A stretch of 64,000 bases of DNA from Acidimicrobiales bacterium. GTDB lineage: Bacteria; Actinomycetota; Acidimicrobiia; Acidimicrobiales; Aldehydirespiratoraceae. The position numbers were made by a program, and so were the translations under genes. How positions within the stretch are numbered: position 1 is the stretch's first letter; the number at the start of each line of letters is the position of its first letter. Location: contig JAWPML010000001.1 in assembly GCA_033344915.1 (NCBI GenBank), forward strand, positions 2,228,369 through 2,292,368. The letters run 5' to 3'. This document shows, in pieces, positions 38,479 to 45,883 of the stretch. A model generated the notes under the pieces. That model was not told the origin of the DNA. It did no database searches and saw nothing but the letters and a program-made list of their open reading frames with translations.

Positions 38479-39234
38479 ATGCAGGCGATCGAGCGAACCT
38501 TCGGCATTCTCGGCGCGCTGGCCGAGCACCCGGAACGGGCCGGGGTCAGCGAGATCGCCCGACGGGCCGATCTGCCGAAGAGCACGACCTCGCGGATTCT
38601 CGCCAGCCTCGAGTCGCTCGGCATGGTCGAACGGATCGGCGATCAGTACGGCATCGGCGCCGCCCTCGCGACCCTGACCCACGGGGCGTCCCCGATCGGA
38701 TCGCTGCGCGAGGTCGCCCGGCCCCAGCTGGTCGAGCTCGCCGATGCGTTCGGGGAGAACGCGTCGCTCGTGGTCGACGACGGCGACATGGTGCTCTACA
38801 TCGACACGGCGACCCCGTCCGACACCCAGGTGCAGGTCCAGGACTGGACGGGCGAACGCCTGCCCTTCCACCCGGCGGCGGGTGGGCTGTCGCTGATGAG
38901 CACCTGGCCCGACGAGCGGGTCGCGGCGCTCGTCGACGACGGCCTCGAAGCGTTCACGGACGCGACGGTGACCTCGATCGAGGCGTTGCGCGCCAAGCTC
39001 CACGACGTGCGCACCCGCGGCGTCGTCTGGACGATCCAGGAGTTCGCCGACGACGTGAACGGCATCGGCGCACCGATTCTCGGCCCGGACGGCGCGGCGG
39101 TCGGGGCCATCAACGTCTACGGGCCGACCTATCGCTTCCCGGGCGACCGGACGGCCGCAATCGAAGCCGCCGTGCTCGACGCGGCCCACCGGATCGCCAC
39201 CCGCCTGGTCGGCACCGCTCAGACCTCGAGATAG
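38479..39234 (+). CDS. IclR family transcriptional regulator
   Basis: This 251-residue protein has the N-terminal winged helix (VSEIARRADLPKSTTSRILA, LGMVERIGDQYGIG) and the C-terminal ligand-binding domain (ENASLVVDDGDMVLYID, HPAAGGLSLMS, GIGAPILGPDG). It is transcribed away from flavoprotein A across a shared palindrome, so it likely controls the demethylation genes and itself in response to a methylated amine. Its last 16 bases overlap the convergent microprotein gene at the end of the Dlt-like operon. Confidence 0.92.
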   Translation: MQAIERTFGILGALAEHPERAGVSEIARRADLPKSTTSRILASLESLGMVERIGDQYGIGAALATLTHGASPIGSLREVARPQLVELADAFGENASLVVDDGDMVLYIDTATPSDTQVQVQDWTGERLPFHPAAGGLSLMSTWPDERVAALVDDGLEAFTDATVTSIEALRAKLHDVRTRGVVWTIQEFADDVNGIGAPILGPDGAAVGAINVYGPTYRFPGDRTAAIEAAVLDAAHRIATRLVGTAQTSR

Positions 39235-39362
39235 CGGAACGGCGCGCCCGGCTCCGCCCAGAACCACCAGATCGCCACGATCGCGGCGGCGAGCACGATC
39301 GCCGTCACGACGACCGCGACGGGACGAGGCAGCACGGACGCCACGAGCCGGAAGATGACCAC
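39219..39362 (-). CDS. 47-residue membrane microprotein with C-terminal Tyr hexapeptide (DltX-like)
   Basis: This GTG-initiated frame begins one base after the MBOAT stop and encodes 47 residues. A short N-terminus (MVIFRLVASVLPRP) is followed by one membrane helix of about 20 residues (VVVTAIVLAAAIVAIWWFW) and a short outside tail, AEPGAPFRYLEV. The last six residues FRYLEV fit the pattern F-x-Y-x-E-hydrophobic. In the Dlt pathway the microprotein DltX ends in a comparable hexapeptide whose tyrosine receives the acyl group from the MBOAT and passes it to the outside transferase. Size, topology, motif and operon place all agree. Homology itself is not shown, and the frame is too short for routine gene calling. 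Confidence 0.72.
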   Translation of the reverse strand: MVIFRLVASVLPRPVAVVVTAIVLAAAIVAIWWFWAEPGAPFRYLEV

Positions 39363-39363
39363 G

Positions 39364-40482
39364 TCACCAGCCTCCCACGAAGAGGTCGCGGAACTCGTCG
39401 AGCATGACGTCGACGGATGCGGCCCGCGTGATCGTGAACCCGGCCATCACGAACGCGACGGTGAGCAGCGTCGCCGCACCCCGGGAGACCAGGCCCGCAC
39501 GGGCGGGGCCCCGTCGATCCGCGTACGCACGATGGATCGCCAGCCCGGCGGCGTGGTACGCGCCCCAGATCAGGTAGCGAGCGGTCAACTCGTGCCACAG
39601 CCCGATCGCGACCATCGTCACGGTGATCGCCGGCACGTGGCGACGCCATTGGGCCATTGCCGGCCGGTACAGATAGTCCGTCGCCCAGCGGGTGAGCGAG
39701 ATGTGCCACCCCCGCCAGAAGTCGGCGATGTTGCGCTGCAGGAACGGACGGTGGAAGTTCGGCAGCACCCGGATGCCCTGGAGATTCGCGATGCCGATCG
39801 CGACCGCACTCCATCCTGCGAACGCGGCGTAGAGGTTCGCGCCGTACTCGACCGAGCGCAGCGCCGACACGAGGCCGGCCCGTTCCGGGTCGATGCCGTC
39901 GATCCAGTCGCCGAACCAGCGGGACACGACGATGTTGGCGATCACCACGGCCGTGAACAGCCCGACGACGACCCGCTCGACCCCCTGGGCCAGGACCGCC
40001 GGGTCGGCCCGGTGGCGACGGAACTCCCGCTCGTGGTCGGGGAACCGGTGGATCGGACCGATCACGAGCAGCGGCCAGTACCAGAGGTAGCTGCACAGGG
40101 CGAGCAGCGACGGTGGGCGAAGACGCCCCGAACGGACGTCGATCACGACGTGGGCGACCCGCGGTGCCGTGTAGGCGAAGCCGAGCAGGGTCGCGACCGT
40201 GGCGACGTCGCGCTCGGCCGAGTCCATCGCCAGGAGCTTCGCCAGCACGAAGGCCGTCGCGATCGTGACGAGGGCGATCGCGGTGCGACTCGCCCGCGCC
40301 CCACGTGTGCCGAGGAAGGCGATCGTCGTCGCGCCGACGAGGGCGGCGGCACCGACCGGCGAGGCCGCGGTGAGGAGAACCACGCCCACGGCGAGGTTGA
40401 CGCGGGCGCGATGGCGATGGGGCGTGATCCAGTGGATCGCCACGGCGACCGCGACGGCGAGGATCCAGCGTCCGTCGATCAC
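39364..40482 (-). CDS. MBOAT-family membrane O-acyltransferase (DltB-like)
   Basis: This 372-residue polytopic protein has the MBOAT signatures: IADFWRGWHISLTRWATDYL, and GLWHELTARYLIWGAYH with the catalytic histidine at about position 297. Around ten membrane helices are present. DltB and AlgI are of this class and take an acyl group from a cytoplasmic thioester and carry it across the membrane. The GTG start overlaps the SGNH stop by 4 bases, and the microprotein follows after one base. The protein itself ends LFVGGW, without an acyl-shuttle hexapeptide; that motif is on the microprotein. Confidence 0.88.
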   Translation of the reverse strand: MIDGRWILAVAVAVAIHWITPHRHRARVNLAVGVVLLTAASPVGAAALVGATTIAFLGTRGARASRTAIALVTIATAFVLAKLLAMDSAERDVATVATLLGFAYTAPRVAHVVIDVRSGRLRPPSLLALCSYLWYWPLLVIGPIHRFPDHEREFRRHRADPAVLAQGVERVVVGLFTAVVIANIVVSRWFGDWIDGIDPERAGLVSALRSVEYGANLYAAFAGWSAVAIGIANLQGIRVLPNFHRPFLQRNIADFWRGWHISLTRWATDYLYRPAMAQWRRHVPAITVTMVAIGLWHELTARYLIWGAYHAAGLAIHRAYADRRGPARAGLVSRGAATLLTVAFVMAGFTITRAASVDVMLDEFRDLFVGGW

Positions 40483-41318
40483 CCGTCGCTCCTGTCGAGC
40501 GCCTCGTGCACCAGCGCGGCGACGGTCGCGGACACCACCGCGCGACCGTCGTCGTTGACATGCGTCCAGTCGCAGAACGAGTCGAGACCGAGCTCGACGC
40601 CGGCCTCGACGGGCCCGATCACGTTCGGCTCTCCGGCCAGCGCGTCGAACAGCACCGCCCGCCAGGCCTCGTCGACGCCGTCGATCGCCTCGATGATCGG
40701 CGGCGATCGCGGGGGTACGTAGAGCACGATCGCCACGCCGTTGCGGGCCGCGTGGTGGACCAACTCGAGTGCCTCGGCGACATACGGCACGGTGGTCGTG
40801 TGCCGGGCGAGGTTGCGCTCCACCGACGTCTCGAAGGCCCGGTCCGTCTGTTCGGGACAGCGACGCGTGTCGAGCGGCGCGAGGTCGGGCGGGTCGAAGC
40901 GGCGACGCAGCCGCTCCCGCAGCGTGTTCTCGTCGTCGCGCACCTCCGGTCGGAAGACGTCCGGTTGGAGGACGAGCACGTCGGGGTCGGCCGCCCACAC
41001 CCGGTCGAGGATCGGCGCGAACGTCTCGTAACCGGCCGCGCTGTAGCCGAGGTTCACCGCACCGACCCGTCGGTCCTCGGTGCTGAGCACGGCGCTCAGT
41101 TCCGCCGCGGTCCCGAGCGCGTTGCGGTCGAGGCTCGTGCCGAGCACGACGACTCGATGATCGACGTCGGCCCCGCCGAGGCCGTCGAGCAGCTCCACCA
41201 TCTGGACCTGGTAGGGATGCAGGGTCTCGGTGGTCCGGTCGGCGACGAACCAGGCGATCCCGAGCAGGGCCACCACGAGCCCGACGATCGTCGCCAACTC
41301 ACCGCGGCGTGGCGTCAC
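40479..41318 (-). CDS. Membrane-anchored SGNH-type acyltransferase (DltD/AlgX-like role)
   Basis: This 279-residue protein has one N-terminal membrane helix (residues about 9-26) and an outside domain. The likely nucleophile is Ser62 in VVLGTSLD and the acid/base pair is D250 and H253 in DWTHVNDDG, the GDS-like and DxxH blocks of the SGNH fold. In Dlt and alginate acetylation systems such proteins take the acyl group delivered by the MBOAT and put it on the polymer. GTG 41318 was chosen because it overlaps the ligase stop by 4 bases (GTGA); an ATG 24 bases upstream is possible. Confidence 0.82.
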   Translation of the reverse strand: MTPRRGELATIVGLVVALLGIAWFVADRTTETLHPYQVQMVELLDGLGGADVDHRVVVLGTSLDRNALGTAAELSAVLSTEDRRVGAVNLGYSAAGYETFAPILDRVWAADPDVLVLQPDVFRPEVRDDENTLRERLRRRFDPPDLAPLDTRRCPEQTDRAFETSVERNLARHTTTVPYVAEALELVHHAARNGVAIVLYVPPRSPPIIEAIDGVDEAWRAVLFDALAGEPNVIGPVEAGVELGLDSFCDWTHVNDDGRAVVSATVAALVHEALDRSDG

Positions 41319-43123
41319 GTGGGCAGCTGATCCCGAACGCATTCCACGATGTCACCGAGCGATCGGATGCCGATCACCGCGGTGTTGGACAACTCGATCG
41401 TCCAGTGCTCCTCGACCGCGGCCACGAGCTCCATGTGCGCGAGCGAGTCCCAACCCGGCGTGGCATCGATGTCGCTGCCGAGCGACAACGCCGCGACGTC
41501 GACACCGAGCACCGTCGCGGCGAGCTCCAGCACCGTCTCGTCGACCGAGCTGCCGGTCACCGCGACCCGGTCGAGCTCGGCGAGCGTCACCGCGACCGCC
41601 CGCGCGTCGATCTTTCCGGCCGGAGTCCGGGGCAGGGCCTCCAGCCGCACCACCTCCCGAGGAACCTTCTCCGGCGCGAGCTGCCCCCGGCAGTACGAGA
41701 GCACGGCGGCCGGGTCGAAGGGGTCGCCCGCCGTCACGGCGGTGACGACACGCTCTCCCCACACGGCGTCGTCGAGGCCCACGGTGCACGACTCGACGAC
41801 GCCCGGAGCGGCACCGACCACGTCGTCCACCTCGTCCGGGGCGACGTTGGTGCCGGCCGTGATGATCATCCGTGACGCACGACCGACGATGACGAACGCC
41901 CCGTCGTCGGTCCGGCGGGCGAGGTCGCCGGTACGGAAGCGGGTGCCGTCGAACACGGCCGCGGTCGCCGCCGGGTCGCCGAGATACCCGGAGAAGAGAT
42001 GGTCGCCCTCGATGACGAGTTCGCCGACCTCCCCGTGGGCCGCAGGTGCACCGTCCTCGCGCACGATGGAGATGGTCGCGTCCAGTGGTCGACCCACCGT
42101 CCCGACGGCACGGCCGGTCTCGGCCGTCGGCCCGCTCAGCAGGCTGCTCGTGACCGTCTCCGTGAGGCCGTAGCTGTTGCACACGGTCACCCCGAACTGG
42201 TCCTCGATCCGACGCCAGAGACGCTCGCCGAGCGGTGCGGCGTTCGAGACGATCGAGCGGAAGTCGTCGGTGCGGAACGCATCGTGGAAGTCCGCGCCGA
42301 GCCGATCCAACAACGCCAGGATCGTCGGCACGGTGATCATGTGGGTCACCCGGTGCGTGTACACGGCGTCGACGATCTCCGGCAGCGCCCCGACCGAGAA
42401 CGCGCCGGGCCGGACCCACGTGCCGCCGTTGACCCACGCCTGGAGCGGACCCTGCACGAGCCCGTCGCTGTGATGGAGCGGGAGCACGTTGTGGATGACG
42501 GTCGCGTCGTGGTCGAGCGCCCGGCGCAGACTCTCGAGGTGCACCGACAGCGCCCGCCGGCTGAGCAGGACGCCCTTCGGCGCGGCGCTCGAGCCGGAGG
42601 TGAACATGATCAGGGCGATCGACGCCGCGTCGCCCGCCGAGTCGACCGCGACCGGTTCGATCCCCGCGAGCCGCTCCGTCAGTTCGTCGGCCGGACCGGC
42701 GGACTTCCGGCGACCGAGGAGCCGCGACGCCATGGTGGGCCGAGCGACGGCGTCGAGGGGCAGCAGCGCCACACCGCACTGGGCCGCGCCGCTCGACTCG
42801 ACGGCCGTGCGGTCGACGACGATGAGCTCGGGTTCCACGAGTCCGACGGCATGGTGGAGTTCGCGGGGTCGGGCCGAGGGGTCGACAACGGCGAGCGTGC
42901 GGCCGGACCCGACGACGGCCGTGAGCACCGCGGCGACGTGACGGGGTTCGGCGCTCATGAGCACGACCCGTCCGGTCGCGCTCACGTTCTCGGCGTCGAG
43001 CAACCCGGCCAGGCGACCGGCCCGGTCGCGCAGCTCGCCGTAGGTGAGGGAGCCGTGCTCGTCGACGAGGAACGTCGCGCGGTCCGGGGTGTCGCGGGCG
43101 CGGGCGTGGAGGTCGGCGGTCAT
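41315..43123 (-). CDS. AMP-forming ligase fused to acyl/peptidyl carrier domain (DltA-DltC-like fusion)
   Basis: This 602-residue protein has an ANL-family adenylation domain (FTSGSSAAPKG, NSYGLTET, FRTGDLARR) including the C-terminal lysine motif RTPAGKIDA. A carrier domain occupies the last 75 residues, with the phosphopantetheine serine at position 560 (GWDSLAHMEL). It can therefore load an acid onto its own carrier arm, as DltA does for DltC. ATG 43123 overlaps the stop of the upstream gene by 4 bases. The substrate cannot be read from motifs; the ligase resembles fatty-acyl/aryl ligases as much as D-alanine ligases. Confidence 0.88.
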   Translation of the reverse strand: MTADLHARARDTPDRATFLVDEHGSLTYGELRDRAGRLAGLLDAENVSATGRVVLMSAEPRHVAAVLTAVVGSGRTLAVVDPSARPRELHHAVGLVEPELIVVDRTAVESSGAAQCGVALLPLDAVARPTMASRLLGRRKSAGPADELTERLAGIEPVAVDSAGDAASIALIMFTSGSSAAPKGVLLSRRALSVHLESLRRALDHDATVIHNVLPLHHSDGLVQGPLQAWVNGGTWVRPGAFSVGALPEIVDAVYTHRVTHMITVPTILALLDRLGADFHDAFRTDDFRSIVSNAAPLGERLWRRIEDQFGVTVCNSYGLTETVTSSLLSGPTAETGRAVGTVGRPLDATISIVREDGAPAAHGEVGELVIEGDHLFSGYLGDPAATAAVFDGTRFRTGDLARRTDDGAFVIVGRASRMIITAGTNVAPDEVDDVVGAAPGVVESCTVGLDDAVWGERVVTAVTAGDPFDPAAVLSYCRGQLAPEKVPREVVRLEALPRTPAGKIDARAVAVTLAELDRVAVTGSSVDETVLELAATVLGVDVAALSLGSDIDATPGWDSLAHMELVAAVEEHWTIELSNTAVIGIRSLGDIVECVRDQLPT

Positions 43124-45840
43124 GGGGCGGGCAGGCGGTCGACGAGGTCGATCCGGTCGGGGGTCTTGTCGGGCCCGAGCGTCTCGTGCAGGCGCGTTCG
43201 GAGATCGGCGACGAGGTACTCCCGGCCGGCATCGGGAATCGCGACGACCAGGGCTCGCAGCTCGCCCCGCTCCGCCGTCGTCGCCACCGTGCAGGAGGCG
43301 ACGCCCGGGTGGGCGCGGATCGCGTTCTCGATCTCCGCACCCGAGACCCGCTCGCCGACGCGATTGTTCAACAGTGCGTCGTTGCGCCCGAGTAGGCGGA
43401 CCGTTCCCCGCTCGTCGACGACACCCTGGTCGCCGGTGTGGATCCACCCGTCGTGACGAGCCATCACTGCATCGCCCACATAGCGGCCGGCGATGCCTGG
43501 CCCACTGACCCGGATCTCCCCCACCTCGCCGACCGCGGCGCGCCGACCGTCGACATGCACCTCGACCACCGCGCCGAGCGCCCGCCCGAGCGACCCGTCC
43601 GCTTCGGCATGGGGCAGGCTGCCCGCGCAGAACCCGCCGGTCTCGGTGAGGCCGTAATAGTCACCCACCCGGACGCCGGTCGAGCGTTCGAACCGGGCGG
43701 CCCGGGCCGGGTCGAGAGGCGAGCCGGTGCTGAGGAGCAGGCGAAGGGCGCCGAGCGGCCGGGACGCGGGCAGGCGGTCGGCCTGGGTCTCGATTGCCGA
43801 GACGAAGCTGGGCCCGGCGGTGAGCACGGACACGCCGGTGCGGCGGACGCACTCCGCCGCACCGAGGCCGTGCTGGGCGTCCGGGCCGGGGACGACCACG
43901 CTCGCGCCCGCCCGGAGCGCGACGAGCGACGGGTTGCGCAGACCGGACATCGTGTGGAAACCGCTCAGCGACATCAGGGTGTCGTCGTGACGCAGGCCGG
44001 CGAAGTCGGCGACGCCGGCCGACGTGTGCATCAGCGAGCGCATCGTCAGTTCGACGCCCTTCGGCTCGCCGGTGGTGCCCGACGTGAAGAGGACCGCGGC
44101 CGCGACGTCCGGACCTTGGTCCGCCCCGGGGGGCGGCGGGGCATCGAGAAACGGTTCGACGACGACGGCGAAGTGCTCCTCGGCCAGCTCGGCCTCCAGG
44201 TCGACCGGGTCGAACACGACGACGGCGTCGTCCCGGAAGCGGTGGCGATGCCGGTCGTCGACGAACACGGCCTTCGGGGTGATCTCGCACCGAATGGCCT
44301 GGACCGCGGCCGGCGTCGATCTCGTCGGCAACGGGACGACGACGAGCCCCGCCCGCCAGGCCGCCCAGATCGTCATCAGGTACTCGGGATGCGGCTCGGC
44401 CATCAGCGCGATCGCGTCGCCTTCGACGAGTCCGCGATCCGCGAACCAGCCCCGCAGGCCGTCGGTGACGACGGCGACGTCCTCCACGGTGAAGATGCTC
44501 CCGTCGTCTGCAGCCAGCAGCGCGCCGTCGCCGTAGCGAGCCGGAAGGACGTCCCAGAGCGCGGCGAAGTCGTCGCCTTCCGGCCGGAGGTCCACGTAGG
44601 TCCGCTGCGACGCCGCCGTGGCCGGCGCCACCTCCGCGACCACGGCGAGCCCCCGGTCCACGAGGTCGGCGACCGGTTCGCGGAGGCCCTCGACCGTTGC
44701 ATCGAGCCGGTCGGCGATCTGGCCGAGCGTGAGCCCGGCCCGGGCGTGGACCACCAGCTGCAGCTGCCGACTGGTGAGATCCGGGGCGAGCCCGATCCGG
44801 TCGACACAGACCGCGTGCCGGGCCGTCATGTACTCGACGACGCTTCCGGGGCGGGCGTCGTCGACGGAGACAGCGCCGCCGGTCAGGTCGATGTCCACGA
44901 GGGGGTTGACGAAGAGTGTGGCGCTCGACGAGTCGATCGGGAGCGGCGGCGCCGCCAGCGTGCGGCCCTCCCAGGCCTCGTCGGCGATGAGGACGAGACC
45001 GTTGTAGTGCTCGGTGTCACGTTCGTCGCGGACGGCGAACGACGCACGTTCGGTGTAGGCACGGGCCTCGCTCATCACCCATGCCCGCCGCCGGTCACCC
45101 GCGAGCCGTGCGTCGAGGAACTCGCCCCACTCCCGACCGTGCCGCTGGGTGCAGCCGCGCTCGAACCACGGGTCCGGTTCGCTGTTCGTGAGATGGATGT
45201 GGGGGAAGACGACGACCGCGTCGGCGTCGCCCACCCGCAGGACCTCGTCCAGCAACGCCGCCTCCGGGTAGCGATGCAGCGTGTCGAGGCCGTGCACGAC
45301 CCGGAACGAATCGTCGACGAAGGGCAGCGGGTCGCCGGGGTGGGCGAACGCGAGCGTCAGGTTGTCCGGGCGGCCAGCCGACGGGAGCGCCTCCAGGAAC
45401 CCGCCGTAGCCGAGCTGGTCTGTGTCGCCCTCCCAGATCGAGACGACCTCGACGTCGGGGAACAAGCCGGCGAGCCACGCTCCCGTCCAGCCCGTCCGGT
45501 TCCACAGATCGAGGATGCGACCACCGCCGATCAGCGCCTCCTCCAGGATCGGCAGGAGCGGTTCGAGCGCGCGGCTCGATTCGTTGAACGGACGGAACCA
45601 CGCGTACGGCTCCCGATGCCCCCGGCGCCGCCGCGCCTCGGACAGCGCCACGAACCCCTCCCGGAAGCGGGGAGCGTCGTCCGTCGCGAACGCCACCGGG
45701 TCGCGACCGCGTTCACCGAAGAACGCGATGCCGTCCACGACCGGGACGGCCGAGCGGCAGCGCTCGCACCAGAGGCCGCCGCCGACCTCCGCCAACCGGC
45801 CCCGACACGTCGGGCACGCGCCACACCCCGAACCCCACAC
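43120..45840 (-). CDS. Zinc-ribbon / methyltransferase-like / AMP-ligase fusion protein
   Basis: This 906-residue protein has four parts. Residues 6-30 form a Trm112-like zinc ribbon (CPTC, CERC). Residues about 75-290 look like a Rossmann methyltransferase, but motif I reads ILDLWNRTGWTG instead of D-x-G-x-G. A helical segment with a helix-turn-helix look (LTLGQIADRLDATVEGL) follows. The last 450 residues are an ANL ligase (VLFTSGTTGEPKG, YYGLTETGG, HTGDQG), which stops at DRLPAP, just where the catalytic-lysine motif should begin. GTG 45840 is the only suitable start before the zinc ribbon and lacks a clear ribosome site. It is the first gene of the Dlt-like operon. Confidence 0.8.
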   Translation of the reverse strand: MWGSGCGACPTCRGRLAEVGGGLWCERCRSAVPVVDGIAFFGERGRDPVAFATDDAPRFREGFVALSEARRRRGHREPYAWFRPFNESSRALEPLLPILEEALIGGGRILDLWNRTGWTGAWLAGLFPDVEVVSIWEGDTDQLGYGGFLEALPSAGRPDNLTLAFAHPGDPLPFVDDSFRVVHGLDTLHRYPEAALLDEVLRVGDADAVVVFPHIHLTNSEPDPWFERGCTQRHGREWGEFLDARLAGDRRRAWVMSEARAYTERASFAVRDERDTEHYNGLVLIADEAWEGRTLAAPPLPIDSSSATLFVNPLVDIDLTGGAVSVDDARPGSVVEYMTARHAVCVDRIGLAPDLTSRQLQLVVHARAGLTLGQIADRLDATVEGLREPVADLVDRGLAVVAEVAPATAASQRTYVDLRPEGDDFAALWDVLPARYGDGALLAADDGSIFTVEDVAVVTDGLRGWFADRGLVEGDAIALMAEPHPEYLMTIWAAWRAGLVVVPLPTRSTPAAVQAIRCEITPKAVFVDDRHRHRFRDDAVVVFDPVDLEAELAEEHFAVVVEPFLDAPPPPGADQGPDVAAAVLFTSGTTGEPKGVELTMRSLMHTSAGVADFAGLRHDDTLMSLSGFHTMSGLRNPSLVALRAGASVVVPGPDAQHGLGAAECVRRTGVSVLTAGPSFVSAIETQADRLPASRPLGALRLLLSTGSPLDPARAARFERSTGVRVGDYYGLTETGGFCAGSLPHAEADGSLGRALGAVVEVHVDGRRAAVGEVGEIRVSGPGIAGRYVGDAVMARHDGWIHTGDQGVVDERGTVRLLGRNDALLNNRVGERVSGAEIENAIRAHPGVASCTVATTAERGELRALVVAIPDAGREYLVADLRTRLHETLGPDKTPDRIDLVDRLPAP

Positions 45841-45883
45841 GGGGACGAATCTAGGGGATCGGCGCGGACGTCCTGTCACCGGG

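What the first reader, a model, noticed from the sequence alone, without database searches (positions are those of the whole stretch)
39219..39362. Uncalled 47-residue microprotein ending in FRYLEV, a likely acyl-shuttle peptide
The frame starts one base after the MBOAT stop, has a single membrane helix and ends in a hexapeptide with Tyr at position 3 and Glu at position 5. The Dlt pathway uses a microprotein of this topology, and a C-terminal hexapeptide tyrosine carries the acyl group between the MBOAT and the outside transferase. The MBOAT here lacks such a tail itself, so the motif being on a separate peptide is the expected complement. It is outside usual gene-calling length and overlaps the IclR gene end by 16 bases.
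Basis: partly seen in the sequence, partly recalled or inferred. Interest (0 to 1): 0.87.

Follow-up and report, generated by a model that had tools for sequence, protein, structure and literature searches.

The report
Detached acyl-shuttle microprotein of an MBOAT
A tiny, easily missed 47-residue membrane protein next to an acyltransferase in an actinobacterium very likely acts as the separate "arm" that carries an acyl group across to the outside of the cell, a role so far described as a separate protein only in the D-alanine (Dlt) pathway.

Summary
The ORF is real: GTG start one base after the MBOAT stop, a ribosome-binding site 8 nt upstream, host codon-position composition, one membrane helix, C-terminus FRYLEV. 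No such frame with a helix arises in 200 simulated windows. A remote relative in another family of the order (MBOAT 36% identical) has a 47-residue ORF at the same place, 34% identical without gaps, ending FRYANL. Phe and Tyr are kept; the Glu is not. Both loci pair it with a tail-less MBOAT, a ligase fused to a carrier domain and a likely SGNH protein. About 60 other MBOATs, one in the same genome, carry the helix and motif (FIYFQF) fused. Most tail-less MBOATs examined have a separate microprotein, as in dlt operons (FIYNEF, FVYEQF). Aligned with fused MBOATs, the microprotein lies without gaps on their last helix. It works like DltX but is not shown to be DltX: Pfam DltX does not match, the ligase is not close to DltA, and the MBOAT is a third lineage beside DltB and the fused type. 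Acyl group and acceptor are unknown. New variant of a known kind.

The parts
39219..39362 (-). 47-aa membrane microprotein (proposed acyl shuttle), GTG start at 39362, stop 39221-39219
   Evidence: same-length relative in G106; motif and helix census
39222..39239 (-). codons of the C-terminal hexapeptide F42-R-Y44-L-E-V47; Tyr44 proposed acyl carrier
   Evidence: Tyr is the only invariant column among eight microproteins; Phe/Tyr (near-)invariant when aligned with fused MBOAT tails
39258..39320 (-). predicted single transmembrane helix (residues 15-35), N-terminus in, C-terminus out by analogy with DltX
   Evidence: hydropathy; DltX topology from PMC5541007
39371..39376 (-). Shine-Dalgarno-like GGGAGG, 8 nt before the GTG, inside the last MBOAT codons
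   Evidence: sequence
39364..40482 (-). tail-less MBOAT acyltransferase (372 aa, GTG start overlapping the stop of the preceding gene)
   Evidence: Pfam PF03062 1.2e-20; DltB structures 6bug/8jem 1e-26 with both active-site His aligned, H260 and H297
40479..41342 (-). membrane-anchored SGNH-like protein (N-terminal helix, block I GTSLDRN, block V D-x-x-H), proposed outside transferase
   Evidence: motifs shared with the G106 protein; no Pfam match, so motif-level only
41315..43123 (-). AMP-forming ligase fused to a C-terminal phosphopantetheine carrier domain (GWDSL), proposed acyl activator and donor
   Evidence: PF00501 1.8e-56, PF00550 2.6e-07; 38% identical to the G106 fusion over the whole length
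43120..45883 (-). upstream gene of the same run: Trm112p-like/methyltransferase-like N-terminus and a second AMP ligase (5' end not determined; upper bound given); accessory, not in G106
   Evidence: ATGA overlap with the ligase-carrier gene

Best explanation
The ORF encodes a real single-helix membrane microprotein that works as the detached acyl-shuttle arm of the MBOAT beside it. Proposed path: the AMP ligase loads an acyl (or amino-acyl) group on its own carrier domain in the cytoplasm; the MBOAT moves it, with its two active-site histidines, to Tyr44 in the C-terminal FRYLEV on the outer side; the acyl-Tyr swings to the SGNH protein, which passes the group to an envelope polymer or glycan. 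Shown here: gene, conservation, motif, gene order, complementarity with fused tails. Inferred: topology, the acyl-Tyr chemistry, docking on the MBOAT, donor by the fused carrier, and the SGNH step. Acyl group and acceptor are unknown.
For: Real gene: start, ribosome-binding site, codon-position composition, chance control. Same-length, same-place, gap-free relative with FRY kept, 16 of 47 identical, 0 of 20,000 segment shuffles as good. Core gene set (SGNH-like, ligase-carrier fusion, MBOAT, microprotein) shared by two genomes whose MBOATs are only 36% identical. Census: about 60 MBOAT loci with fused tail and no MBOAT-linked microprotein, against tail-less MBOATs with a separate one (window, G106, Leptolinea and the Dlt-type loci). 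In 544 kb and 9,721 frames, all nine membrane frames with the motif lie at MBOAT loci, eight of them at tail-less MBOATs. Alignment with fused MBOATs puts the microprotein on their last helix without gaps. In PatA and Dlt the Tyr of this motif is the acyl carrier (PMC12148441). The own genome's other MBOAT has the fused tail ...EFIYFQF.
Against: Only one orthologous locus was found (2 carriers in about 400 genomes of the order, none in six congeners), so conservation rests on one comparison. The SGNH protein is recognised by motifs only; profile comparison with DltD finds nothing. The last motif residue is Val or Leu, not Phe. Five of twelve true dltB loci of Actinomycetota show no motif-bearing microprotein within 5 kb, so the pairing is not perfect. 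The Leptolinea pair has no ligase or carrier nearby. No expression or chemical evidence.
Confidence: 0.85

Rival explanations
1. It is DltX in the strict sense: a D-alanylation operon in which the microprotein has moved to the 3' end.
For: Same size, topology and motif as DltX; true dlt operons of other Actinomycetota have their microprotein at the 3' end after dltD; a carrier domain is present.
Against: PF12459 (DltX) does not match it or anything in the genome, though it also fails on microproteins of true actinobacterial dlt operons. MBOAT scores 150 against a DltB cut-off of 375, no better than fused MBOATs, and lies outside the DltB clade. The ligase is 22% identical to DltA and matches fatty-acyl ligases best. 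No DltD similarity.
Confidence: 0.1
2. A real microprotein that only stabilises or regulates the MBOAT and carries no acyl group; the motif is a docking plug.
For: Small single-helix partners of membrane enzymes are common (general knowledge); for DltX itself an alternative regulatory role has been raised (PMC11035591).
Against: The only invariant residue across the microproteins is the Tyr that carries the acyl group in PatA, and the motif is complementary to fused tails.
Confidence: 0.07
3. A spurious reading frame in the gap between convergent genes.
For: It overlaps the IclR end and is short.
Against: Ribosome-binding site, codon-position composition, chance control and a gap-free relative in another family.
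Confidence: 0.02

Closest known systems
DltX of the Dlt D-alanylation pathway (Pfam PF12459)
   Same: 45-50 aa, one helix, C-terminal FxYxx[hydrophobic] with Tyr fourth from the end, separate from a tail-less MBOAT that works with a carrier protein
   Different: No profile match; gene lies after the MBOAT, not before dltA as in Bacillota; Arg at motif position 2 and Val/Leu at the end; ligase and carrier are one protein and not DltA-like
Fused C-terminal tail of PatA/AlgI-type MBOATs
   Same: Same last helix and hexapeptide, gap-free alignment, Phe and Tyr kept
   Different: There the tail is part of the MBOAT and the donor is acyl-CoA (shown for PatA, PMC12148441); here the arm is a separate protein and a carrier domain is encoded beside it
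Leptolinea sp. HRD-7 hrd7_34310/hrd7_34320 (Chloroflexota plasmid)
   Same: 47-aa one-helix peptide (...LWIYQGF) beside a tail-less MBOAT
   Different: Upstream of the MBOAT, no ligase-carrier nearby, MBOAT not closely related

Membership tests
DltX (PF12459) | match to the family profile | tested here: not met
   no match at E<=10 for P0002 or P0004, none in the genome
DltX (PF12459) | about 50 aa, single helix, C-terminal FxYxxF with Tyr fourth from the end | tested here: met
   47 aa, helix 15-35, FRYLEV; Tyr invariant in the alignment with DltX sequences; last residue Val instead of Phe
DltX (PF12459) | encoded with DltA, DltB, DltC and DltD | tested here: not met
   analogous parts only: ligase-carrier fusion not DltA-like, MBOAT outside the DltB clade and under the DltB cut-off, SGNH not DltD-like
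DltX (PF12459) | Tyr accepts D-Ala from the MBOAT and hands it to the SGNH protein | not testable with these tools
   needs biochemistry
MBOAT acyl-shuttle motif proteins (functional class, PMC12148441) | Phe-x-Tyr motif at the extreme C-terminus after a final outward-going helix, paired with an MBOAT | tested here: met
   (helix direction inferred)
MBOAT acyl-shuttle motif proteins (functional class, PMC12148441) | conserved MBOAT active-site histidines | tested here: met
   H260 and H297 align with the DltB histidines and are invariant in 14 and 27 aligned MBOATs
SGNH hydrolase-fold transferase (partner gene 40479-41342) | SGNH fold with blocks I and V | tested here: inconclusive
   G-[TD]-S block I and D-x-x-H block V present in both loci; no Pfam, PDB-sequence or DltD profile match; model too poor, pLDDT 40

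The most novel reading that the evidence does not exclude
A third lineage of envelope-acylation systems, separate from Dlt and from the fused acyl-CoA systems, in which a ligase with its own carrier domain feeds a split MBOAT/shuttle pair that moves a group other than D-alanine; free shuttle microproteins are a general and overlooked part of such systems in several phyla.
Probability: 0.6. Interest if true: 0.72.

Novelty: new variant of a known kind. Interest (0 to 1): 0.6.

Why it matters
Published work states that MBOAT/SGNH acylation pathways other than Dlt lack both a carrier protein and a DltX-like microprotein (PMC12148441). This locus and its relative have both outside the Dlt family, and a tail-less MBOAT with a microprotein also occurs in Chloroflexota. 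It supports the acyl-Tyr shuttle as the common principle, suggests that the arm comes either fused or free, and gives a simple rule for annotation: an MBOAT that ends about 70-85 residues after its WH motif should make one look for a 45-50 aa partner.

Tried and rejected
AlphaFold of the SGNH-like protein from two sequences gave pLDDT 40, so no fold search was made. The genome-contig scan with the single MBOAT sequence returned only remote MBOATs, nearly all with a fused tail; the plasmid search gave fused MBOATs, true dlt loci and the Leptolinea pair. Phylum-, class- and genus-wide searches found no further orthologue. The DltB profile score turned out not to separate split from fused MBOATs, so a tree was used. 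Profile search of the SGNH-like pair against PDB sequences and DltD gave nothing. No terminator or promoter by consensus near the ORF. A suspected fusion of the shuttle to DltD in L093/L096 proved to be a separate ORF.

Full report
Observation. Three facts read directly from the DNA support a gene: a GGGAGG eight bases before the GTG; codon-position GC (0.71/0.48/0.92) equal to that of the MBOAT (0.70/0.52/0.91); and tight coupling of the whole run, with ATGA, 28-base and GTGA overlaps between the genes upstream. It is the only frame of the window that ends in F.Y..[FVILM]; simulated windows give 0.01 such frames each and, in 200 of them, none with a membrane helix.

Surroundings. In order of transcription: a gene with a Trm112p-like start and an AMP ligase; an AMP ligase with a C-terminal carrier domain; an SGNH-like protein with one N-terminal helix; the MBOAT; the microprotein. 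The MBOAT matches DltB structures over residues 91-325 at 1e-26, and both active-site histidines align. It ends 78 residues after its WH motif and lacks the two extra helices that PatA-type enzymes have.

Conservation. In samples of about 300 and 400 genomes of the order, plus class, phylum and genus searches, one other genome, G106 of another family, has the orthologous MBOAT (36% identical). Twenty-five bases after it lies a 47-residue ORF, MKLYLWLRQRVPWPVAAMVTSVWLASLLFLAVFFLDEPAATFRYANL: 16 of 47 residues identical without a gap, 0 of 20,000 segment-preserving shuffles as similar. Upstream are an SGNH-like protein and a ligase-carrier fusion 38% identical to the window's; a sulfotransferase is present where the window has its extra methyltransferase/ligase gene. 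So F-R-Y, length, helix and place are kept; the Glu is not.

Complementarity. Fused MBOATs (140-194 residues after WH...FIYFQF and variants) had no MBOAT-linked microprotein; this includes the window genome's own second MBOAT. Tail-less ones had one in the window, G106, Leptolinea (Chloroflexota...LWIYQGF), Limosilactobacillus, Enterococcus, Niallia (...YIYNDF) and seven of twelve actinobacterial dlt loci (...FIYNQF...FVYEQF...FVYSSF). In five of those twelve none was found within 5 kb, and one plasmid dltB inside a bacteriocin region (L053) had none, so the rule is not perfect. Across 544 kb and 9,721 frames of 25-250 aa, eleven end in the strict motif; nine of these have a membrane helix, eight at tail-less MBOATs and one a DUF5989 protein. 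When the microprotein is set behind its MBOAT and aligned with fused MBOATs, its last residues fall on their last helix and tail with almost no gaps, and Phe and Tyr are invariant in 14 and near-invariant in 27 sequences (the alignment was computed with the two joined end to end, which favours but does not force this register). Among eight free microproteins the Tyr is the only invariant residue.

Lineage. In a tree of 44 MBOATs, the fused enzymes form one side of a branch (100/99), DltB another (100/100), and the window with G106 a third (100/99) placed between them; branches are long, so the order of the three is unsure. The split state is therefore shared with DltB without membership in the DltB clade. 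The DltB profile does not separate them (150 and 164 bits, fused ones 165 and 186).

Mechanism. In Dlt and PatA the Tyr of FxYxxF takes the acyl group from the MBOAT and gives it to the SGNH protein; this is published chemistry (PMC12148441). By anatomy the same is the best reading here, with the fused carrier domain as probable donor. The acyl group is open: the ligase resembles fatty-acyl ligases most and DltA weakly (22%), yet by my hand alignment an Asp (HHSDG/HHTDG) falls where DltA has the Asp that binds the amino group, so an amino acid is not excluded. The acceptor is unknown.

Verdict. Observation confirmed, interpretation supported at the level of comparative evidence. It works like DltX; membership in the DltX family fails on profile and on the company it keeps. 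Published work holds that other MBOAT/SGNH pathways lack both carrier and microprotein; this one has both. New variant of a known kind.

Noticed in passing
L047:9494-9697 (+), Sinorhizobium chiapasense plasmid NZ_CP133152.1: A DUF5989 protein (PF19451, 8.6e-25) is a one-helix small protein ending ...APFIYTLF close to a GDSL/AlgX-like SGNH gene; DUF5989 may be another family of free acyl-shuttle peptides. No paper on DUF5989 in the library.
   Followed up: partly
L056:3771-5370 (+), Leptolinea sp. HRD-7 plasmid AP024711.1: 47-aa hypothetical protein hrd7_34310 (...LWIYQGF) directly before a tail-less MBOAT, with no ligase, carrier or SGNH gene recognised nearby.
   Followed up: partly
L089:7605-7766, L090:7598-7768, L093, L094, L096:7764-7916: True dlt operons of some genomes of the window's phylum have a DltX-like peptide at the 3' end after dltD (...FVYEQF...FVYSNF); the two of these scanned against Pfam are not matched by DltX PF12459.
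   Followed up: partly
L087, L092, L095, L097, L098: dltB loci over the DltB cut-off with no motif-bearing microprotein within 5 kb; the shuttle may lie elsewhere or have diverged.
   Followed up: no
window 43120-45883 (-): Unusual fusion of a Trm112p-like zinc ribbon, a methyltransferase-like region and an AMP ligase, overlapping the start of the ligase-carrier gene.
   Followed up: no
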